Assembly (NCBI GenBank): GCA_033220425.1 | Contig: CM065652.1 | Span: 2,294,001 to 2,358,000, forward strand | Length of the DNA: 64,000 nt | Reading direction: 5' to 3' | DNA from: Lepraria neglecta | Taxonomy: Eukaryota; Ascomycota; Lecanoromycetes; Lecanorales; Stereocaulaceae | Notes under the pieces: generated by a model | Told to the model about the DNA's origin: nothing | Database searches by the model: none | The model's input: the letters and a program-made list of their open reading frames with translations, nothing else | Translations under genes and position numbers: made by a program | Part shown: positions 21,414 through 36,731 of the stretch, one piece after another | How positions within the stretch are numbered: position 1 is the stretch's first letter | Layout: the number at the start of each line of letters is the position of its first letter

Positions 21414-22305
21414 GGTGTGCTTCCCATCACTGAAGGTAGCCGCGTCGGGAATGTAGGCGCCAATGCCTTTTCAGCCACCGGCAAAGGATGCAATGGATCA
21501 GAGCGCCTCGCGAGACTCGTTTGTTTAGTAGCAGGCAGGTGCCTGGCAATTGGAATGTCATTCCCAAGGTTCCATTTCGCGGACTCTTCCTGTTCATGGC
21601 AGATCTCCCATTCCTGACTTGATATTAGCAGCGCGCATTTGAAGGACGGCCTACGTCAACAAGACATTACATCTGATGAGCCAGGATCGTCTATGATGCC
21701 CATTCTCCATGGATCGTTATTATCCACTCTGATAGGCGACCACTCTTTTATATCGAGTCCGTACGGATATGGCTTTCGACCCGGTATCGGAGCAGTGCGT
21801 GACTTAATGTGGTGACGTTCCTCATCATCAGGTGGCATCCTGGAGAACCTGGATCTATCGTCGATGACGGAGACCCCGATGAAGATAGATGTTGCAGGAA
21901 AAAAGTAGCTGAAAGAAGTGTTATAATTCAAAGTCCAAGGCTTATCAAATTTAAACAAAATATTCAAAGTGGTATGTTATCGGAAGATAGATATAATGAG
22001 CGGCTGCATTCAGAGAGATACGAAGGTATTGCCAAAAGCTCGAAGCGAGACATCATGGGAGTGGAGAGATCGTGCGAAAATGACAAAAGGCGTATTCATG
22101 ATTTTATGGATTTCTTGGCATTCCAATCCATTGCATCCCCCATACAAATTTACATGCAAAACACGACAATCAACCATATATCGACATATAAGCCATTCTG
22201 CCGTCCCAATTGAGTAAATATGAAGCCTTGGTTACTATTCATAGGCTAATCCATAGTGTTGCAGTCTCGACACGCCCCCACCGCCCCCCTCCCTACCTCA
22301 CCGCC
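21414..22305. other. Intergenic with one unassigned small open frame
   Basis: A 103-codon frame at 21656-21967 (minus) ends in a Pro/Asp-rich segment that looks somewhat protein-like (GRKPYPYGLDIKEWSPIRV). There is no known family, and it may be an exon of an unrecognised gene. Nothing else seen. Confidence 0.3.
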
Positions 22306-23210
22306 ATGCCCACATATATGATTGATACTGCCTCCAAGGCTTATGCGGATGGGCTTATACGCAACCATTGGAAGCCTACCGCTGTAGCTAAGAAGGTCTA
22401 CTACCACCCGAACACCGTCTATAAATGGGAGAAAAGGATCCAGATGTATGGGACTATAGATCTACTGAATCCTCTGCATGCGGACTTAATCTTTGCAGTA
22501 ATAGCAACATAGTCGCCTACTGCATGAACACTGTCTCTAGCATTGTCAAGCTCTAGGCGTAGAAAGTCCGTATTGAAATTATCCTTCAGCCAATCATCTT
22601 CTCCAATAGCATTCGTCCATTTAACCCTATTCCCTTATTCCTTAGTCTACATTATTAAGGAGGCTCTGACAGAATAAGTATATGGATTTTCCTGCCATTC
22701 TTCCAGGTTATCTTCTTCTTCTCGTAATCTTCTATCTTCTGGATCCGTTGAGGGTAAACTATCCCTATTATCTTGTTGTCCAGCCCCCTAACTAGCTTGA
22801 TTAACTGCTTCTCCTTCTCCTTCTGCCGGTCTTAGTCTACCTTCATAGCCTTGTTCCCTGAGTACCGCCACTTCCCTTCACTCCGCCGCAGCAGCCTGCT
22901 AGAGAAGAGTCTATCTTCGCTTCTCCTGACCAGCTTTCTTCTTCTCAGCCTTTTTGAGGGCCTAACTCATAGTAAGTCGCTGACTTGCTAACGGTGGACC
23001 CTAGGTTTTTCGTATGGGCTTGGGGGGCGCCTAGCGCCCTACCTTCTTTTTGCCTCCACCATTCCCACTGGCGGCAGTACTGTTCTCCGGCTGGTCGTCA
23101 GCGAATCGCACCGGCTTGGGGGGACGATTGCTCTTCCGCGCAGGTTGCTAGGGGGGCGGTAGGAGGGGTGGTCCCAGGTCGAGAGGAGCGCTGTTCAGGC
23201 ATTTAGTATC
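22306..23210. mobile_element. Decayed DNA-transposon fragments (Tc1/mariner-pogo type)
   Basis: At 22306-22512 (plus) a 68-residue frame reads like a transposase helix-turn-helix (KAYADGLIRNHWKPTAVAKK, then NTVYKWEKRIQMYG). From about 22990 down to 22650 the minus strand reads like a Lys/Ala/Glu-rich transposase tail (KKAEKKKAGQEKR, AVLREQ), interrupted by several stops of the TAG type expected from C-to-T change. The opposite orientations suggest two separate fragments or an internal inversion. Family assignment is tentative. Confidence 0.45.
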
Positions 23211-23934: not shown

Positions 23935-24000
23935 GTGAGCTGAGGGCAGATTTTTGTCGCCTTGAGATGCCAAGGTGACAAAAATCTGCCCCGGGCTCAC
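23935..24000. repeat. Palindrome: two 30-nt arms, 6-nt loop
   Basis: Arms at 23935-23964 and 23971-24000 are reverse complements at 26 of 30 positions, with loop AGATGC. The core GCAGATTTTTGTCGCCTT recurs at 36612-36629. It looks like a transposon end joined head-to-head with another copy of the same end. Confidence 0.8.
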
Positions 24001-24112
24001 CCTCCTCCGAGCCTAGGGTGAGCGCCGCTTTACGCTCGCGCGAGCCTGGGTGAATTAGCCCATCCCCGCGGGGGCTCTACGGGCAGAAAACCCATATATC
24101 ACGATCTGCTGC

Positions 24113-24153
24113 GCAGGAGGAGGAGGAGGAGGAGGAGGTGGTGGTGGTGGTGG
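24113..24153. repeat. Microsatellite (GGA)n then (GGT)n
   Basis: A run of AGG/GGA triplets changes into GGT triplets just inside the left end of the element, outside any called gene. Confidence 0.85.
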
Positions 24154-24305
24154 TTATTCAACCGGCTTGGATGGAGAAAGTCCCAACAATACAGATACAG
24201 ACACGCAGCTCCTTAAATAATTTTCATTTCATTGGCTCTCATGACTAGATTTCTATACGGGTGTCGTACAAACATAAACAAACATCCCAGGCAAAACGCA
24301 AACCA

Positions 24306-25685
<1,380 letters not shown>

Positions 25686-26182
25686 GTTGTTGAAGGCTCG
25701 AGTTTAGACTGAGCAGTTACAGAAGGACGATATCAAGAAAGATTCCGTGAGAATGGCAGCATGAGAAATAGCAAGACCCTCACTGCGCGAGCAAGAATAA
25801 TAAGGACAGCGTCACAGCTAATGTGACAGCAATACAGATAACAATACAGAGAGGGTTATTACTGCAGAAGTCCGAGGTCTTGAACCGGGCGCCGGTCGCT
25901 TCTGTTGGTGGTGTTCCGCAGACAGCAATGCAGATATAGACCAAGCCGGAGTGGCGGATGAACAGAGGAGGTTTGTGATGCTGAGAAACACAGAGGCACG
26001 CAAGAATCCTTCCATGCGGATTCAGCAAGGCGCACAGCCTGCAGCCTGCTGGGCTCAGCGGCGGTGCATAAGTTTCACTAAAAATCCTTCGGAGGATTCG
26101 AGCGCAGCACCATTCAGCTGTTGTTTCAACTACTTGAGCGCTCGGAGGCTGACTAAGTGGCGCAATTGGCTGTAGAGCTTTA
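25686..26182. other. Intergenic: Hsp70-like promoter and flank of the pogo element
   Basis: No gene recognised. The stretch up to 26182 ends at the TA dinucleotide next to the nested transposon. Confidence 0.4.
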
Positions 26183-27436
26183 CTCGTATTGCCCCCCCAA
26201 CCGCCAGTCCCCCCCCAAACCGCCAGCCGCTAAACCTAATTAGGCAAACTATCAAATGGTATGTCGAAAATCATACTCAAACTCCTCCATTCCACCCATT
26301 GCATGCCACCGTAATGGCTATATCAACGCTCCACGGCTCTGACGGCCCTGCCGACCTTCTACTAGAGCAAGAAGACCTCTAGATAGGCCCTCTGGAGCTC
26401 CCGAAAGAGTAAAGGATCCTGTTGGCTATAAACTATTATCACGAAACCATTGGAACACTATAAGCCGAATCGACTTGCCAGATCGCTACTCGGTTCCGAA
26501 TCAGTCGGACTACTCTACGAGATCGAATCAAAGGAGCCAGATCAAGGAATGAAGTCAGCCAGGAGTAACAATTACTATCACCAGCAGAAGAAGCCGTAAT
26601 CGCCAGATGGATAATATAACTCGGAAAATGGGGGTGGCCGGGTCATGCAATTGCGGTCTATAGCCTAGCAGATACTTCGAAAGAGAGGTTATATAAAAGA
26701 CCTAGGCAATTACTGGGTTGAGAAGTTCTTCAATCGCCATCCTGATCTAAAAACGAAATTCCTTTCGCCTATGGATAAAGACAGGAACAACATCGCCAGT
26801 GACCCTGAAACGATAGCTTATTAGTTCGAGCTCTACTATACAACGAAGCAGCAGTACAAGGTAGAAGACTAGGATACGTACAATATAGATGGGAAAGGCT
26901 TCCAATGCGACCCCTAGTAACACCAAGAGCACCCTGAATAACTGCAGCTATACCTCATCGAGCACACATATCAGATACATTAGCGAGGCCGGAGCAGCCA
27001 GTCCTTATGCGAGAGCTATCGCCCAATCCAGTGGCCATACAGGGAGGTCGAATTATCAGGAAGCCACGGCGACTCCTTGAATAGGCGCTATGCCTAATGA
27101 AGAAGGAGGTGCAGGCCGAGGAAAGCATTGCAATCGCGTTTTCAGGCCTGATTTCGAGTTCGAATTGGAATATGATATCGCAAGCAGAGTTATGTATTCG
27201 AGGATTCGGATGGATGTGCTGCACCAACCACATGAGATATGGCTTGTCTGAATAGCAGGGCCTCTTCCACCACTGCCTCCGGGCCTCTTGTAGAGCTCCA
27301 ATTGGGCCACATGGCCATGTAATGCAATGGAATGGAGGCATTGAATAGTGGCATTGATAAATCATTTATTAGCGCTCCCAATTAGGCTTAGCGGCTGGCG
27401 GTTTGGGGGGAGTGGCGGTTTGGGGGGCAATACGAG
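26183..27436 (+). mobile_element. Pogo/Fot-like Tc1-mariner element, internally decayed
   Basis: 1254 bp flanked by TA on both sides (26181-26182 and 27437-27438), the Tc1/mariner target-site duplication. The ends are inverted repeats of about 55 bp starting CTCGTATTGCCCCCC. They contain repeated blocks CCCCAAACCGCC and run into AGCCGCTAA(A/G)CCTAATT. The interior reads on plus like a transposase N-terminal half: TLRDRIKGA, then VIARWI.QLGKWGWP and NWVEKFFNRHPDLKTKF (Tc5/CENP-B type helix-turn-helix). Several stops interrupt it and the DDE catalytic half is missing, so it is a non-autonomous deletion derivative. Confidence 0.8.
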
Positions 27437-28071
27437 TAATTCCGCGATCGCTCCGAGCTTCTGCCGAGAAACCTTTTAAAGCAGGCAGGACTAATACTGC
27501 GACCCCAAGAGGAAGAGTTCCTTGTTATCCATTGTGTGATGGATTCAGTAACCCATTGCACGGCTGTGCGGGCGTTCAGACAGGAAGTGGGAATTTCGAA
27601 GCTGCACAAGCTATCCTCGTCACCGCGAAACACAGCGAATGGGAAATGGCGAAACAGACAGCTCTCTGATGCATCATGCTTCTTTCTGTGATTCCCCCCT
27701 TACCACAATAAACATGTTTCTAATTCAAAACTCGGATTATGCTTGGGTGCAATCCTTCATGCAGTGCATTTGCTGCGGTTCCTCATGTTTCAAGCTACTC
27801 CTTCTAACCTGCCAATGCCATGCTGCTCAAATTTCACGTTTGGTCAGTCTCCTACACACCAAGCAATCGCCTGGGAATTCCACAAGACTATTCTTGTCCA
27901 AAGCAAAACACTCCGCAAACCTGTTCGGTTCCGCAGTGACTACGCCGTACTCCAAGTGTCGAAGAATTGATCAAGTGCTTTCAGGTTAAGGGATCGGGAA
28001 CGATCAATATATCTTGGTGAGTCGTTGCCTTGGATGAATATCGTCCGTTCGAAACAACAAAGCTTTCCATC
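27437..28071. other. Intergenic upstream of the SGNH hydrolase
   Basis: No gene recognised. A frame at 27403-27669 begins inside the transposon terminal repeat and is not credible. Confidence 0.4.
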
Positions 28072-29387
28072 ATGATTACAATGTCTACTACCAGTTCGAT
28101 GCTGGCCCTGTTACTGTCTTTTCTCATTGATAAAACACATTCAAATCCCATTGCGCCGGCACCGGACGGTGAATCAGCTCTTGCACCTGGGACTGCGTTA
28201 GGTCCAACAAACACATCAGGTCCAGATGTGCGACTATGGGCGCCGAATACGCCCTGCAACGACGGAACTCCAGCGGAAGATGTAGTTTCTTGGGTGGCAC
28301 TAGGGGACTCCTATGCGTCAGGGTATGTCGTATACCATTATACCAAGTGTATAAATAGCTTATTGTCTTCAGGGTCACGTATAACAACTGGCCAAATGGA
28401 AATCTTGATTATGATCAGGGTGATCAAAAAGCAATCAATGCCTGCCGACGAATTGTCGACGCCTACTCCGTCCAATTGAAGAATGACGATGATACCAGCT
28501 GGGCAGCGAACAAATGTCCTTACCTTCAATTTCCTGCCTGCTCTGGCAGTAAATTCGATGCCATTGACGGACAACTGAACCAGGTCAACGACCGTTATGC
28601 GCCAAGATTCGCAACTATGAGCATGGGAGCCAATGAAGTTGGTTGGGTTCCTGTTGTTAAAAGCTGCATCTATCATGACGACCTAAATTTCGATTACGGC
28701 CCCGACTTCCCCGATCCGAACGGAGCCTGCGCTAAAGAGATTTCCAATGCCAACACCACTATCCTGAATGACGATGAATATAGCAACACTTTCAAGGATA
28801 ATTTCATCGGGGCATTTCGAAAGATTCGGGATTATAACTTATTCAGCCAGAATGACGACTTCCGTGTCTTTGTGACTGGCTACGCCCAGTTCTTCAATGA
28901 AGACGACCCTGCATGCGATAACTACTCGTTCCGGCCTGTCGGAGGGCCCAAGATCACGACGGCGCTCCGGCAGGCCATGAACACCCTCGTGAAGACTTTG
29001 AACCAGCGCTACAGCGGTCTTATTGCCGCCGAGAACGATCCAAAAGTAGTATTCGTCCCCATTGATGACGGCTTCCAAGGTCACCGTTTTTGCGAGCCCG
29101 CCGGGTCGTATAGGGATCAACGAATCAACAGCTGGTTCTGGGATCTGGCCGTCTTCGACAACTACGTGCCCAACATGGCGCAGCCTCAGCTGTGCGATCC
29201 CGACACCGATCCAAGCTGCCCGGATGTCGCGGCGGGCAACCCAAAGTACGGTGGTCCCGTGAACGTTGATGGCAGCGTCGGTGGCTCGCCTTCCCTGACG
29301 CGCATCTTCCATCCTAAACGGCCGGGCCACACGGCTATGGAACAGGCGCTCAAGTCTTCCATCAAGGCGAATCTGAAAGTGACGTGA
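28072..29387 (+). CDS. Secreted SGNH/GDSL-type hydrolase (esterase or lipase-like)
   Basis: Exon 1 is 28072-28322; a 50-bp intron and exon 2 (28373-29387) give about 421 aa. A signal peptide is likely (SSMLALLLSFLIDKTHS). Block I is ALGDSYASG with the nucleophile Ser near residue 80. Block III-like MGANEVGW carries the oxyanion Asn. FHPKRPGH near the C-terminus supplies the catalytic His. Several Cys residues fit secretion. Splicing produces SYASGVTYNNWPNGNLD across block I. The reaction would be hydrolysis of an ester in a lipid or cell-wall polymer; the substrate cannot be told. It lies within the candidate mobile element as cargo and looks intact. Confidence 0.85.
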
Positions 29388-29941
29388 GGGTTTAGCCGTG
29401 AGGATTACCGAGCGTTGAACTTGGGGGCGATGAAGCGGTGGTGAAGACGCTAATGGCACAGCGCTTTCATCACGGTGAGCATGACGGTGACAGCGGGGGC
29501 GTTACGGAGTGGGTAGAACTGCTTGGAGGAAAATGCTATAGCGATGAGGAAAGCAATAGTGATGGCGTTAATTTATAGCAATGGACATAGCGACGGCGTT
29601 TATATTGTGAACCGGGATGGGATGAGACACAGAGCAACAACTCATTTGCTCTGATACCTTGACTCGTTAAATCATTCCATGTACATCGTATCTCTGGACT
29701 TGCCTTGTGACTTAGATTGAGGAGAGCTTTTGCGGCACGACAAGCTCGAAGATCCCGAAGTCAAATAATGATCTCACCTGGAGTCAAAGCTTCTTTCCAT
29801 TCTCTCGAAGATATTTTTTTGTAGTGATATCAGGCATGTCTTGGTCGGCGATGAACTTCCCGGATCAAGAGAAAAGGATTTTGAATTCTATCCTAAAACT
29901 ACTAAAGACCTAATCGAGCGTTACAGGATAGTTGTGTTTTT
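29388..29941. other. Intergenic, no recognised gene
   Basis: 3' flank of the SGNH hydrolase, with imperfect short repeats of GCGATGG-type words near 29520-29600. A plus-strand frame at 29841-30293 is judged antisense noise. Confidence 0.35.
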
Positions 29942-30883
29942 TCAAGGTCGCCCGACACATATAACTCTTCGCTCAAAGACCAGGATTGTTCCAAAATCTA
30001 AAGCACGTAATGTTTCCCCAAATGTTGCAAGAAGTGGAAGTGCCAGCGAAATAGCTATCGGTGAAATTGCCGCAAGGGTCGCCGTTACTGGGATTCCTTG
30101 TGGAAATGTCGAGCTGCTCTTGGCCTTGGAGACCCCGGTGAAGAAACGCAAAACTGTAAATAGAAATAATTTTGGATGTATAGTACGTCATATTAGGAAA
30201 TTGAGTGAGGTCATCAAACTGCCACAAAACTCCGCTGCAATTCCTTTGGCGATAAGTCACAAGTCCGATCATCGAAGGCTGGTCCTGTCATAAGTTTTAG
30301 TCGTGATTGGTGGAAACAAGCGAGAGCGTACCTGTCGTGTATTTAATTGGCCGTCGGCATCACTCCTGACAAACGGGGTGTCGACATGCAGACCATTTGC
30401 AGCCTCTGTAGGGTGAGCAATGTCTGCTGTGTTGGGTCCTGTCAAAGCGGTACAGACCTGAACAAGGAGATAGGTGTGGTAGAGCAACGTCTTCGGTGAA
30501 TGCATTCTGTGTTTTCTGGTGAAGGTATGCTTCCAAGGTGTTGGTTTGGTCCAGTAGCCTGAAGGGTCGCCGCTGAATATCGAGCCCAGCATGACAGTGT
30601 CAGAAGGGATCTAAAATGGCTATGAACAAGGTGCAGGCCGAAGACAGCCTCAACATTGTAGCGAAGGAACAGCTGAGCTAGGCTCTCCAGGTGATATGAC
30701 GAGATATAAGGTTGCTCATGGTCGTGGATGAGACAGTTGTACCTGTGCGCCATGGGTATCAGCGGCTGCGCTGCGACAGGCGTAAGGAACATACGCATGG
30801 CAAGAGGCCTTTAGATCAGCATCTGTGGGGTTGTAAGATAAGCCTGGTACGAAATGAACTGGAGTCAATGCAACGTCTGCCAT
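29942..30883 (-). pseudogene. Disrupted hypothetical gene(s)
   Basis: The 5' part starts at the ATG at 30883. A 52-bp GT-AG intron (30743-30794) joins LKASCHA to YNCLIHDHEQPYISSYHLES, which continues to EAVFGLHLVHSHF. There the frame breaks by one base near 30612 and resumes as IPSDTVMLGSIFSGDPSG, then YWTKPTPW. Further on, TEAANGLHVDTPFVRSDADG joins by another intron-like step to SMIGLVTYRQRNCSGVLWQF. The last part contains a hydrophobic stretch (ATLAAISPIAISLALPLLAT). It may be one gene or two. No family is named with confidence. Confidence 0.35.
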
Positions 30884-31549
30884 GGTCGTAGTTTTGGTGC
30901 ACACTATTTATTCTAGCGTGCACAAATTGTGGTGCATACCATAGGTTTTGGCGCACACCATCTGGGAGTACTTACATACTATTAATAAATTATTTATTTA
31001 TATCTCCTGTGAACTTTCACAAAGTATTATGTGACGGTGCTTTTTTATATCTAGGGGAAAAAGTACCGTCACGTGCAGTAGTTGGGAAAGCATAAGACGG
31101 CGAGCAATTTCTGATACACATTCGGTACGTGCAGAGCTGTCTCAATCCGAGAGACGAAGATTGAGGCACCTAAGGTGGATATACAGATCAAATCGATCTC
31201 ACGATTATTCTAACAGAGTGCAACAGAGCGCTGCAAAGCGATCGTTTCACCGTCTTGGTTGGGCGAAGCAAGAAGGCCTTCAAAGTCGCGGAAGTTCTTC
31301 TGGCACATCCTTATACTATTTGCTTCTCATGTTTATAGCATCCTGATTGCCATGGGTCGTTCAAAGTGCGGTGCCCGAATTGGTGGGGGGGAGGTTGTTT
31401 TTGGGGGGGGGGGGGGGGGTGCCAGAACTGGTCCTCCTGAACTAATCTTAGACTTCACAGGTCGAACGCCCACTATACTCTCAAATGGACCTGCCTCACT
31501 TCTTTATTAAGATCCACAACCTTTTCCGCAGGTGGAAAGCGTTAATTAA
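30884..31549. other. Intergenic with palindrome and poly-G run
   Basis: No gene seen. It holds a short palindrome (31031-31072) and a run of about 17-18 G near 31404-31421, next to another G-rich run at 31385-31392. Confidence 0.5.
31031..31072. repeat. Short palindrome, 15-nt arms
   Basis: GTGACGGTGCTTTTT at 31031-31045 pairs with AAAAAGTACCGTCAC at 31058-31072, with one mismatch and a 12-nt loop. It resembles the two ends of a very small palindromic element. It also shares the general style (GTGAC... with an A/T run), but not the sequence, of the end repeats of the larger element. Confidence 0.7.
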
Positions 31550-32299
31550 ATGGCCGCATTTCGATCAAATAACTTGAATCGTGCTGCGTATCGAGCGAAG
31601 TGCCGTAACAAATTGTCCGAGCATATCCGTAAGATCTAACGACTCGTGGAGAATAGCTATCGCTCACAGAGTCTCCAGGAGCAAAGCTTGGAATACCAGT
31701 TGAGCCGGCAGAAGTACGGCTGTGCTGATGATCCGTACACCTGGAAAATTTTGCCCGAGAAAGAACACCTCTTCAAGAAACAACTCAGCAAGCATTCTAT
31801 CGGCGCTTACAGGGAATTGTGCCGAGGAGTAGGTGTATCGTTTGAAGCTTTTCTGGTACCTGGATCGAGTAATGCGGCGGAGAGTAAGCTGCGGGAGGAT
31901 AGCCGAGGAGATTCAGTAGGTGTCCTTCCATTACTCAAGCATAGCTGACGGAGTCAACAGAATCACCCCGAGATTAGCTTCACCACAGTAATCGAACAAT
32001 TACAAACTGAGAAGCTCACAATGGCCGCGGAGCTGGACAGGTTACACGGTCAGGCGATCAAGGCGACGGAATTGAAGCAGCTGGCCGAAGAAGAAGCAGC
32101 TCGATCGAAGTTGATGATCCAGGCAGCTGAGGCGGACAAACATATCCTGCAGCAAGAAGTGCAAACCCTTACAGCGATGGTGGAATACTTTAGACACACC
32201 ACAGCAACCTCCGTGAACGAGGTCCTCACGAGACTCAAGCTTGACCTTAGCCTTTTCGGTGGTGGATCATACACTGATTCGTTGTGTAGTGCAAGCTAG
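31550..32299 (+). pseudogene. bZIP-like / coiled-coil gene with one in-frame stop
   Basis: From the ATG at 31550 the frame reads FRSNNLNRAAYRAKCRNKL, similar to the NRAAxRAxRxR basic region of bZIP factors, then HIRKI, a TAA, and RLVENSYRSQSLQEQSL. A CAA-to-TAA change would explain the stop. A 45-bp intron (31916-31960) joins RGDS to NHPEISFTTVIEQLQTEKL. The second exon is a long helical coiled coil (ELDRLHGQAIKATELKQLAE). Without the stop the product would be about 234 aa. An alternative splice that avoids the stop was tried and broke the frame. It lies within the candidate element. Confidence 0.45.
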
Positions 32300-32944
32300 T
32301 CAGATTACTGCGAAGCTCCGTCAAATAAAATTATATAAGTAGGAGATGGAAAATCGATCATTGAGACTGTACACAGACCGAGAGCCATAGACAGAAGATA
32401 TGATATTAAATGCTCACGCGCCTTCTCTTCACGGAAGTTGATATATAAATATGAATAGTAGAACGACATCTGCTTGTGCCGCAACAGCAGGAGTGGTAGG
32501 CAAGCAGTAGAGATACACGAAAGGGAAGAAAATGGAAAGGACAGTGCGAGCACGGTTGACCCTGAAAAACACGACCTCTAATTCTGTGAGCAAAAAGTCG
32601 AGCGTCAGATATGAAACACGTTTCAGAGCTTTAGCTCACTATGCGGATTGTCGATCTCGAAGATTATAGAAGTCGAAGGAAAGACGCCACGACCTCGTCC
32701 TTACCTTCGAAGTGTTTGTGACAAGATAATCTGTGGAAGAATTCGTGAACCGACTCAAAGTTGAACTGAATTCTTTCAGTGGCGGAGCGCGAGTGGTTTC
32801 CAAAACTTCGTTCAATAGCTAGATGCTTAGACCACTCTCATTTAGCTGAATGTCCTGCCTGGCCAAATCACCAACTACGATCTCAATCGTGGCGAGGGAT
32901 AACCTCACTTTCAATACAGACGAGGTGATTGATAGATGACGCGG
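32300..32944. other. Spacer with no recognised gene
   Basis: Short stop-rich frames only. The segment near 32700-32840 reads like a diverged echo of the preceding coiled-coil exon (compare 32723-32770 with 32195-32290: GTGAACGA/GTGAACCGA, GACTCAA, TTCGGTGG/TTTCAGTGG), suggesting a decayed duplicate. Confidence 0.35.
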
Positions 32945-35900
32945 TTAAATTCGCTTTCTTCGGCGATTACGGGCACCTCGGCGGACAGGTGTCGGGGCCG
33001 GAGCCCTCTTTGGTCGACCCAATCGCAGGTTGACCTGAGGCTTGGGTGCAGGCTTAGGATGGCGGACATGGAGCGTGATGCGGGGCTTCTTGGCCTGGAT
33101 CTGGTTGGGTTTCGATTTGGAGGCAGCCTCATCGATTGGTCCTTTTCTCTCCGCGGAAAGGCAAATATCATTTGGGCGGAATGGTGGGTGGTGGTAGGCT
33201 GATGTGGGTGTTAATAGTACCTCCATCATCCTCCGCGTGGGAATATGGGGAAGGAGAGCGCAGGTACTGTGAGAATAAAGCTTCATCGTCGGGTGTTGGA
33301 GCGTCGCCTGTTTTAGATCCGAGCTCTTCCATTAGGTCTGTCGGCGAGATGTTGTCGTACGGGCAAATGCCATCTAGTGAGCAGGTCTCATTGGAATCTG
33401 GAGATGAAGTCGATTGGTCAGGACTCAGCTCCGGCAATCGATCGTCATCGAACGTCATGTCCATAAGGGAGACCTCGAACGGCTTTGACGAAACAGATAT
33501 CGGAAACGCGCCGAGATCTTTCGGATCGAGCGAGTGAGTGGGAGTCCATTCGGGTTGTCCATCGGTCATTACCGGTCGTGAAGAATGCTTCGACAGCCGT
33601 AGCTCTTGCTCGCCATTATCCTGCCTCTTCCGCTTCTGCCGCTTCTGGCTCGTGGGGTCAGACACCCAGTGGATGAGAGATTGCGAGTCGCGCCCGCTTT
33701 GCCAAGATATCTTCATGTGTGGGCTCATCTGTAAGCTGTGCACGTCGCTCAGGTGGTAGAGGAATGACGTTTCGTCTTGGAGCTGCAGGCTGTATGAGGG
33801 GTGAGGGTAGTCCATGGGCCATTGGGACGCTTTCAAGTGCGTGCCCAGGTGACTCCACAGTTTGGCTTCTCGGGTCCAGGAGGTCCATCGGGAGGACGCC
33901 GGGAGCCGGTCGTCACTCAGACAGAAAGGGCAGAAGGCAGGCCGGAAGAGTGTATTGCAATAGGTGATCGATGCGTACCGTTTAGAGGACATCGACTCGA
34001 GATGCGTTTGGTAATATTAATCCTATTCCTCTTCGACGACCCAATCGAAGTAAGCGAAGCAGTATTTCAATTCGGAGTCTAGACGCTCGAGCGTCTTAGC
34101 CAGCTCTTGTTGGCGACAGCGGTGGATGTGCGTGCTCCGTTGAGGTTTGCGTAAGCTGTAAACGTTAGACTTCTGGGGCCTGAATGGATCTGAAGGATGA
34201 ATACTTGTCCATAGATTGACCACAGCCCTCCACCGGACAGAGTCCCTGTACTGGCTTCTCACCATGCCGGTATAAGGTGGTGCAGTCCTAGGATGCGAGG
34301 GAGCAGAGGTCCTCGATGGCGCCTTTGCATTCCTCTTCCGATACGACTCGATCCGAAATCATCGTAATTGCGAGATGACTACGTTCGGGTATTACTCGTA
34401 ATAGAATGTCGAGAAGGTCTGTTTTTGTTTCGTCTTTAGGACGCTCCTTTCCGCGCGTCTTAACCTTCTAATCCCTCCGCTCCCGGACCTACTCGAGTTT
34501 ATATTACTATAATCTTTTCTTGGTCAGGCGGGCTTGATACCCCCGGGCTTTGCTTTCGACGGCTTTAACGTCGGCCATAGGGCTTTGTCGTCTTTTAAGC
34601 TGCTGGACTTCGGATTTCAGTTCCAGAAGCTGTGGATCTCGCCTAATCGCTTCCTCTTCTTCGGCAGGTAGTTTACTAGGAAGGCCCTTTTCGCGAAATT
34701 TGGCAAAGGATTAGAAATAGTCAACGTAATCATGTTGGGCGGTTTCACCTAAGAAAGCGGATTTCCTACAGATAGACGAGGTGTTCGCTACGTAGCTTTG
34801 GCCGTAGACACGAGGGTCGGTCTAGTTGATATATTGAGATCGTTCGACTTCGGTGTACCTCCCTATATAATTCTTCGTTAGCGAGACTACATCTCCTTTA
34901 CTATTTAAAACCACTTACTATTAACCTTCTTGCCGAGGTAACAGCGGATAGTATAAACTGTTGTATTCCCAAAATATCCTGAGAGGTTAAGTACCGATTT
35001 CAGGATACGATTAAAGGTTCTCTTTGGAAGCGGCTTATTGGTAATACCCTATTGTATAGTAGCGTTGCGCAGGATCGGAAGAGCTATAACAGAATCCTTC
35101 TATCGAAGAGGAAGCTCGTCCTCGCCGTCAGGGATTTATAACTACTATAAATCGTCGAGAGATTCGATACCCTAGATAGCGTTGTCTGCGAGAGCTAAAG
35201 CTAGTAGATACTGGGTATTATCGTAAAGCAGTGTGCTGTATTAACTTATAGACGCGCCGTATCTACCGAAGTAAGTTATTATCAATCTAATAGCTTAAAG
35301 ATAAGACAGGCAGGACTTATACACTATATTCTCCGGGTCGCGGTTATTCTTCACCCAGCGTTAGTCGAGTTAATATATTACTTTCCACCTACCACTGGGG
35401 ATACGTTTGAGGACGAGTTTAATATCCTTTCGATCGTCAGCGAAGCTTCTAATGGTTAGCTCTATCGGTACGTACCCGGTATTAAAGGCCCTTCTTACTG
35501 TCATCCTTCTTGTCGGGGAAAAAAGCGCCGATCCTTACGCTAGTCTAACAGAAGATAGTAATAATAAAGGGGATTTGAGCTTTATTGCGTGGATAGATGA
35601 ATTAACTATTATTGACGGTCCAGAACGTCTTTATAAATTGGACCAACTCCTTCTCGCCGAACAAATGCTTCGGCTTCTTCTTATTCACGACCAACCCTTT
35701 ATAGGTTAACGTATACCTTACCCACTAGTAGAGTTCTGTTTAGTAGGGACTTCGAATATTAGACCAGGTTACACTTATATCGTATACAGCATACCTATCT
35801 TCCTCTTCGATGCGATTGCCCGTTACCCCAGCAAATCTAGCAAAAAGCCACTCGCCAAATGTATTCATTGAATCTACGGTAACGAGCTCCTCCTTATCGT

Positions 35901-36360
35901 TGATAGTCCCTCGGCTAATAGTAGTGATAAAACGGAGGAAGTCTTTGATCGTGGCAAGATCGAGAGGAGGTAGCCCTTCACGAAGTCTCTGGGCTCCTAT
36001 AGTATGTATATAAGGTATCGACGGTGACCTGCTGATTCAAGACTGACTCTCCGGCGTCGCGCTTCCTTTCGACAGTAGCCACCTATCTGCTCGTCCTAGT
36101 CAGTAACGGTAATCAGAGGTATCGATCGGCAATGGCACTCACTTTTCATAGCGTTTCGAAGTAATGTTCTGATCTCTCAGAGTCTTTACTATATACCGCG
36201 TCCTATCCCTCTTGCTATCCTCCACGTAGTGTGCTCCCTGTTTGTAGCCGTTGGCAACGGCTTTCGCCAAAAGCTCTTCCGGTGGAACATCTTGCCGGCC
36301 TATAGTCGCAAGATAGAGACGGAGTAGCTGGGAAGGAGCGTGGTGGATAGAGATGGCAGT
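32945..36360 (-). pseudogene. DUF3435 (FluG-type) tyrosine recombinase relic, Starship captain-like
   Basis: Reading leftward, the N-terminal part gives GRQDVPPEELLAKAVANGYK. Then come PPLDLATIKDFLRFIT and VTVDSMNTFGEWLFARFAGVTGNRIEEEDRY, the SAM-like arm of DUF3435 proteins. The next block is NKKKPKHLFGEKELVQF, followed by a recombinase-core segment with several TAG/TGA/TAA codons of C-to-T type. A helical segment follows (FAKFREKGLPSKLPAEEEEAI). The C-terminus has Cys/His-rich LFRPAFCPFCLSDDRLPASSR with LWSHLGTHL and FLYHLSDVH. The tail is Pro/Lys-rich with an AT-hook-like GRPKRAP. Family recognition is by these blocks; the gene is clearly inactive. Its place at the right end of the element is the key context. 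Confidence 0.65.
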
Positions 36361-36608
36361 TGTAGTCTTTGGTTGATACGAGTAGGAACGGAAGACGCAA
36401 GATGATGGGGGGGACTGGCTCCCCTTTATGCCCCACCACGGCAGCCATCTTTCAGGACCACCTGAATGGGGCTGTGTGCAAGTGCGTGCCCATCTCTTTG
36501 TTCGAACGTGGGGGATTGGGTGAGTGGGAGGGTGAGGGTAGAGTGTGCATCACCCCTGCTCACCCGGCGCGCTCGCTAAAGCGGCAGCGCCCGGGCGAGC
36601 CTCGAGTG

Positions 36609-36629
36609 GGGGCAGATTTTTGTCGCCTT
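36609..36629. repeat. Right terminal inverted repeat of the candidate element
   Basis: Reverse complement of 23972-23992 with one difference (C/T). The flank continues CAGAGGCCAAG, which resembles the GAGATGCCAAG loop region at 23964-23974. Confidence 0.75.
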
Positions 36630-36731
36630 CAGAGGCCAAGCTGCACTAGCAAACCGCGAAATTTATGAAGTAGAACGCCGAACTTTCGACGTGCTTACAA
36701 TAATTCGCCTATATTGGACGACGTTGCAATA

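What the first reader, a model, noticed from the sequence alone, without database searches (positions are those of the whole stretch)
23972..36629. Candidate miniature Starship: inverted repeats, inward-pointing DUF3435 captain relic and cargo in 12.7 kb
The sequence shows two ends, 20/21 identical in inverted orientation, with matching GC-rich subterminal words. The first gene inside the right end is a DUF3435-type recombinase pointing inward. Starships are known to have a DUF3435 tyrosine recombinase at one end in this orientation. The inference is that this is a small, RIP-inactivated member with cargo genes, some apparently intact (SGNH hydrolase, Hsp70-like). Most known Starships are larger, so a compact or internally deleted form would be noteworthy.
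Basis: partly seen in the sequence, partly recalled or inferred. Interest (0 to 1): 0.85.

Follow-up and report, generated by a model that had tools for sequence, protein, structure and literature searches.

The report
Compact captain-bearing Starship in a family
A 12.7 kb stretch of this fungal chromosome is a small gene-carrying jumping element with a damaged recombinase gene, and the genome holds many relatives of similar size that carry different genes between the same ends, although such elements are usually thought to be giant.

Summary
Window 23972-36629 is bounded by 20-bp termini in inverted orientation, and a broken DUF3435 recombinase ("captain") gene (36303-32948, -) is the first gene inside the right end, pointing inward. 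Within 3 mismatches the terminus occurs 87 times in the 42-Mb genome, as two classes, L and R, with different subterminal sequence. I catalogued 62 R and 76 L ends; 21 L-R pairs face each other within 15 kb, against 0.8 for random placement. Ten of ten pairs examined have the direct repeat TGCCAAG, at most one base off per copy. Five of 21 DUF3435 loci lie 1.2-1.4 kb inside an R end, none inside an L end; chance 0.05. Units carry different cargo. Best reading: a Starship-type tyrosine-recombinase element with a dead captain, in a multicopy family of 2-22 kb units; 2 of 23 paired units hold a Pfam-detectable captain. A published pipeline discards elements under 15 kb as never full-length Starships. 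The empty site could not be tested, and 53 L and 39 R ends have no partner within 25 kb.

The parts
23944..23963 (+). R-type terminus of a neighbouring element, abutting the left end (starts 28 bp apart); only about 9 bp of its subterminal sequence remains
23968..23974 (.). left copy of the direct repeat, TGCCAAG
23972..23991 (-). L terminus of the element
24014..24042 (-). L subterminal block (TAAAGCGGCGCTCACCC type), a zero-mismatch match to the pattern
   Evidence: C7:2318014-2318042; alignment A2
26181..27439 (.). nested terminal-inverted-repeat transposon, high copy, the eleven best full-length copies 93-98% identical
28021..29387 (+). cargo gene resembling SGNH/GDSL hydrolase (342-aa open stretch plus upstream part)
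31307..32471 (.). cargo segment shared (85%) with C1:4615529-4616688, beside an R end whose captain core is missing
32948..36303 (-). captain relic: DUF3435 tyrosine recombinase, many stops, RIP-type indices at 34-36 kb; C-terminal stretch (33168-34016) still open
34459..35234 (-). stretch matching Pfam PF11917 (two pieces)
36558..36587 (+). R subterminal block (CTCACCCGGCGCGCTCGCTAAAGCGGCAG type)
   Evidence: C7:2330558-2330587; alignment A1
36610..36629 (+). R terminus of the element
36630..36633 (+). 4-base stretch CAGA between R terminus and direct repeat; variable between copies and apparently element-borne
36634..36640 (.). right copy of the direct repeat, GGCCAAG (6 of 7 bases as on the left)

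Best explanation
The element is a compact Starship-type transposon. A DUF3435 tyrosine recombinase encoded just inside the R end would recognise the inverted termini and subterminal blocks, bring L and R together, and recombine at TGCCAAG; the excised unit then inserts at another TGCCAAG, leaving that repeat on both sides and a short element-borne NNNN between the R terminus and the right repeat. Shown here: two end classes, direct repeats, pairing, captain position, different cargo. Inferred: circular intermediate, strand exchange within the 7-bp repeat, mobilisation in trans. This copy sits at the repeat next to an R-type end of another copy. Its own captain is dead (stops, RIP-type indices). 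Most paired relatives have no Pfam-detectable captain and would have depended on one elsewhere; loss by internal deletion is seen at one R end (C1:4614023) and inferred for the rest. Whether any captain of the family is still intact is open.
For: Two classes of end with distinct subterminal sequence. 21 facing L-R pairs within 15 kb against mean 0.81, maximum 5, in 500 random placements. Direct repeat TGCC(AAG) on both sides in 10 of 10 pairs examined, of 23 within 25 kb. Host sequence left of TGCC looks random while NNNN on the right is restricted (36 L and 41 R ends): an asymmetry that fits a site-specific recombinase. Five of 21 DUF3435 loci lie 1,201-1,440 bp inside an R end, facing inward; none within 3 kb of an L end in that geometry; random mean 0.05, maximum 2 in 2000 trials. 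Homology to the window runs from the captain to the R terminus in the C4 and C8 copies (82% over 3.7 kb, 75% over 3.0 kb); the rest of the C4 element shares only the L end. R-L abutment 28 bp apart at three places. At C1:4614023 the captain core is missing but R end, captain C-terminal part and a cargo segment remain.
Against: No empty site: joined flanks of ten pairs match only their own loci and, for the window's left flank, R-end motifs; the one repeated flank gave a third locus at 74% that is not a clean empty site. The two repeat copies of the window differ at 1 of 7 bases. 53 L and 39 R ends have no facing partner within 25 kb at this sensitivity. Most ends were sorted into L and R with the help of the bases next to the terminus, so the repeat is not wholly independent of the sorting; the subterminal blocks are. 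No captain-less unit was seen with the same cargo at two places: the two units tested had one full copy each. Only 2 of 23 paired units hold a Pfam-detectable captain. The polarised C>T changes show no strong CpA preference.
Confidence: 0.78

Rival explanations
1. Each compact unit was once a normal large Starship that inserted at full size and later shrank in place by deletion; compactness is decay, not a transposition form.
For: Captain relics with stops opposite conserved residues in 5 of 7 copies read; many ends without partner; nested transposons and the captain deletion at C1:4614023; no captain-less unit found twice in two tests.
Against: Both termini and both repeats survive in the ten pairs read; 21 facing pairs lie within 15 kb and only 6 more, some of them alternatives, up to 50 kb, with no sign of the large forms from which they would have shrunk; long open frames (978-aa ankyrin, 539-aa HET) lie between close ends.
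Confidence: 0.25
2. The L/R units belong to a conventional terminal-inverted-repeat DNA transposon (DDE transposase, Pack-type gene capture) and DUF3435 genes are cargo.
For: Inverted termini, many copies, gene-bearing units, as in Pack-type elements (recalled knowledge); most paired units lack a Pfam-detectable captain.
Against: Constant TGCCAAG repeat instead of a random duplication, and NNNN on one side only; DUF3435 at the same place beside R ends at 5 loci, never at L ends; captain homology continuous to the R terminus.
Confidence: 0.06
3. Chance or ordinary repeats: unrelated low-copy repeats that happen to lie around a solo DUF3435 relic.
For: The terminus occurs 87 times, mostly away from DUF3435 genes; [quoted passage not shown]
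Against: Pairing and captain geometry far above random; the reversed-pattern control gave 1 match against 87.
Confidence: 0.03

Closest known systems
Starship superfamily (DUF3435 captain elements of Pezizomycotina)
   Same: DUF3435 gene first inside one end, pointing inward; direct repeats; terminal inverted repeats; variable cargo. In A. fumigatus, direct repeats of 2-12 bp in 19 of 20 Starships and TIRs in 18 of 20 (passages of PMC12153272).
   Different: 2-22 kb instead of about 20-700 kb; elements under 15 kb were discarded there as never full-length Starships; many copies with different cargo, where A. fumigatus Starships are mostly single-copy, although the same paper says that some other species accumulate copies; TGCCAAG is not among the target sites of that paper's Table 1.
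Cryptons (other tyrosine-recombinase transposons)
   Same: Tyrosine recombinase, direct repeats (general knowledge).
   Different: The passage of PMC12134995 calls their recombinases very distantly related to captains and contrasts Starships with them in having TIRs at times; here DUF3435 and 20-bp termini.
Pack-type elements and MITEs (recalled; no call)
   Same: Non-autonomous multicopy units that keep the ends and, in Pack-type elements, carry other genes.
   Different: Mobilised by DDE transposases with target duplications of varying sequence; here a fixed 7-bp site and a site-specific recombinase.

Membership tests
Starship | DUF3435 tyrosine recombinase (captain) | tested here: met
   PF11917 above cut-off in the window; relative P0004, 979 aa, carries PF11917 and aligns in pieces over its length. 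The window copy is broken.
Starship | captain is the first gene inside one end, pointing inward | tested here: met
   starts at about 36303, 0.3 kb from the R terminus, minus strand; same geometry at 5 of 21 DUF3435 loci
Starship | short direct repeats of the target at both ends | tested here: met
   TGCCAAG / GGCCAAG in the window; 10 of 10 pairs examined, at most one base off per copy
Starship | terminal inverted repeats (common, not universal) | tested here: met
   I5
Starship | variable cargo genes | tested here: met
Starship | empty insertion site in another strain | not testable with these tools
   no fungal genomes to compare; none found within the genome
Starship | large size (about 20-700 kb; under 15 kb discarded) | tested here: not met
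   12.7 kb; size is a customary criterion, not a mechanistic one, so I file it as a variant and not as a typical member
Starship | functional captain mobilises the element | tested here: not met
   captain relic has 22 stops opposite residues of relatives; autonomy excluded for this copy, past mobility not
Crypton | Crypton-type recombinase and absence of TIRs | tested here: not met
   DUF3435 and 20-bp TIRs
DDE TIR transposon | target-site duplication of fixed length whose sequence varies between copies | tested here: not met
   the repeat is the near-constant TGCCAAG

The most novel reading that the evidence does not exclude
The genome holds a swarm of miniature, mostly captain-less Starships: compact units with minimal L and R ends that were mobilised in trans by a divergent DUF3435 captain and repeatedly picked up different host genes, the Starship counterpart of Pack-type elements. 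Units may also insert next to existing R ends and so build tandem arrays.
Probability: 0.55. Interest if true: 0.85.

Novelty: new variant of a known kind. Interest (0 to 1): 0.72.

Why it matters
If compact units move, the size filter used in Starship searches hides a class of gene carriers, and captains can act in trans on short cargo units. The two end classes and the TGCCAAG site define a recombination substrate small enough to test directly, which bears on the open question of how Starships acquire cargo.

Tried and rejected
Empty site inside the genome: joined flanks of ten pairs and one repeated flank: none found. An open frame of 173 aa across the joined flanks of C1:1041689-1047525 had no significant Pfam match, so it is not used as evidence. 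ORFs of the higher-scoring DUF3435 loci gave a match only between one protein piece (loaded twice) and the C8 copy, 30% over 69 aa, E 8e-5, so this captain looks like a divergent lineage. No solved structure resembles the one DUF3435 piece tested, from another lineage. No paper holds the six phrases tried for miniature or captain-less Starships, nor the five end sequences; searches for non-autonomous or trans-mobilised Starships showed no such report in the titles and abstract starts listed. All this covers only the held library.

Limits of the counts: the 62 R and 76 L ends include sites found by pattern only and not read one by one, four doubtful ones, and one (C1:863177) that I had called 'other' and that came back through. 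DNA matches of the window element are a capped list: 39 of 169 candidates scored. Cargo was read in 9 units besides the window: seven with both ends read, one (C3:3563697-3573235) with the L end read and the R end known from its subterminal block, one (C2) with both ends known from subterminal blocks only. In one search stops are counted without regard to introns; one search was made for that.

Full report
What is in the window. The 20-bp terminus lies at 23972-23991 (minus) and 36610-36629 (plus); none of 100 shuffles of the window gave a match at 3 mismatches. A third copy at 23944-23963 (plus) abuts the left end. Pfam DUF3435 matches at 34459-34860 and 34917-35234, minus strand, 6 stops each. 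A protein search with the C-terminal part of the relic gave 4 proteins, two of them with PF11917; one of 979 aa from a Sarcosagium campestre assembly (Pezizomycotina) aligns in pieces from window 36303 down to 32957. So the captain gene is about 3.35 kb and begins 0.3 kb inside the right end. Of the 24 one-kb windows tested (18-42 kb), only 34001-36000 passes both RIP indices (TpA/ApT 1.18 and 1.35; (CpA+TpG)/(ApC+GpT) 0.75 and 0.61; the usual thresholds, about 0.89 and 1.03, are recalled). Against that, changes polarised with two other copies are C>T or G>A in 80 of 180 cases, without strong CpA preference (30 CpA, 25 CpG, 18 CpT, 7 CpC of 80), so RIP is likely but not proven.

The ends in the genome. 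With up to 3 mismatches there are 87 copies, the reversed control 1. All 87 were printed with flanks and sorted into R ends (40, and 2 doubtful), L ends (38, and 2 doubtful) and 5 others. The sorting used the bases next to the terminus, then my eye on the subterminal sequence. R: subterminal block, terminus, NNNN, TGCCAAG. L: a different subterminal block, terminus, TGCC on the host side. Host bases left of TGCC are close to random in 36 L ends, while NNNN is restricted in 41 R ends, with G or C first in 36 and A or T second in 40. Adding pattern searches for termini and, independently, for subterminal blocks gives 62 R and 76 L ends.

Pairing. 21 L-R pairs face each other within 15 kb, 23 within 25 kb (1.7-22.0 kb, median 9.5 kb), 27 within 50 kb with some alternatives. 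Other relative arrangements within 25 kb number 12, three of them exact 28-bp abutments. Random placement gives 0.81 facing pairs within 15 kb (500 trials, maximum 5). Without partner within 25 kb are 53 L and 39 R; their partners may be decayed, lost or distant. In the ten pairs whose flanks were compared, the left repeat is TGCC in 9 and CGCC in 1; the right is TGCCAAG in 8, TGCTAAG in 1, GGCCAAG in 1.

Captain and ends. The 36 DUF3435 matches form 21 loci. Five lie 1,201-1,440 bp inside an R end, pointing inward: C8:442763, C8:3626849, C4:499359, the window, C4:3767256; none within 3 kb of an L end in that geometry; random mean 0.05 (2000 trials, maximum 2). At C4:499359 the R terminus itself is missing. 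Homology to the window runs from the captain to the R terminus at C4:3763602-3767275 (82%) and C8:439745-442782 (75%); in the C4 element the rest shares only the L end. C4:1230976-1239870 keeps captain fragments. C1:4614023 keeps the R end, part of the captain C-terminus and a cargo segment at 85% but not the core. Of the 23 paired units, 2 contain a Pfam DUF3435 match. In 5 of 7 captain copies compared with relatives, 6 to 22 stops lie opposite residues and away from possible introns; in the other 2, in the stretches read, stops occur only at possible introns, so an intact captain in the family is not excluded. The lineage is divergent from the genome's higher-scoring DUF3435 genes.

Cargo. 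Units read: 2.0 kb with a kinase-like frame (APH, just under cut-off); 8.9 kb with P450 stretches, an O-methyltransferase stretch and a retrotransposon-type frame (name by eye); 5.1 kb, no Pfam match in the frame tested; 7.3 kb NACHT plus ankyrin repeats; 5.8 kb HET; 4.9 kb Nudix plus a frame that I call HET-like by eye (no Pfam match); 9.8 kb captain plus an 803-aa frame without Pfam match; 11.8 kb MFS transporter; 9.5 kb with a sub-threshold glycosyltransferase-like match. The kinase-like cargo has an 89-90% relative at C4:3911252-3913991, split by a 1.83-kb insert, with no terminus within 5 mismatches in the 4 kb read: a possible donor. Window cargo: SGNH-type hydrolase (55 homologues, many with PF13472) and an unnamed protein (4 homologues). 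For both, a 96% homologue comes from a contig of 333,462 bases, and a distant homologue from a contig of 96,181 bases, so the two genes probably travel together; that the contigs are the same is inferred from equal length.

Host. The named SGNH homologues are mostly fungi that I recall as lichen-forming; one was looked up (Teloschistaceae, Lecanoromycetes). The host may be a lichen fungus; its species is not known to me.

Literature. Seen: passages of PMC12506042, PMC12153272 and PMC12134995, and one whole section (6) of PMC12153272; PMC12289983 was opened but held none of the terms sought; all other papers only as search listings. A. fumigatus Starships are described as about 20-700 kb, mostly single-copy, with elements under 15 kb filtered out; the paper adds that some other species accumulate copies. 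None of its listed target sites is TGCCAAG.

Verdict. Observation confirmed; interpretation supported in kind and widened: a compact Starship-type element in a multicopy family of short units. The claim that short units themselves transpose is likely but unproven.

Noticed in passing
window 36732 onward (+): UTP11 (PF03998, an rRNA-processing factor by name) starts about 90 bp beyond the right direct repeat, so the element sits in its promoter or 5' leader.
   Followed up: partly
window 26181-27439: Nested transposon with inverted ends beginning TTACTCGTATTGCCCCCC, many copies genome-wide, the best at 93-98%.
   Followed up: no
window about 24330-24455: Long CAT/ATG triplet run that gives a poly-aspartate tail in the minus-strand ORF.
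   Followed up: no
L107:307-4551 (C3:2976250-2983750): NACHT-ankyrin gene with many near-identical ankyrin repeats inside a 7.3-kb unit.
   Followed up: no
C6:666870 (+) and C6:666915 (-): Two L-type ends back to back about 45 bp apart.
   Followed up: no
L116 (C4:3910600-3914600): Copy of the kinase-like gene split by a 1.83-kb insert with inverted ends ACGTAATCTACCCCCTAGTTGGCCA.
   Followed up: partly
C1:4646831-4648173: DUF3435 matches of another captain lineage, three pieces without stops, lying between an R end (C1:4614023) and an L end (C1:4660216) 46 kb apart.
   Followed up: no
window 22192-22512 (+): Helix-turn-helix frame upstream of the element, resembling a transposase start (weak Pfam matches).
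   Followed up: no
C5:2172601 and C6:3303062: Two L ends with the same flanking repeat (89% over 216 bases) and a third locus at 74%.
   Followed up: partly
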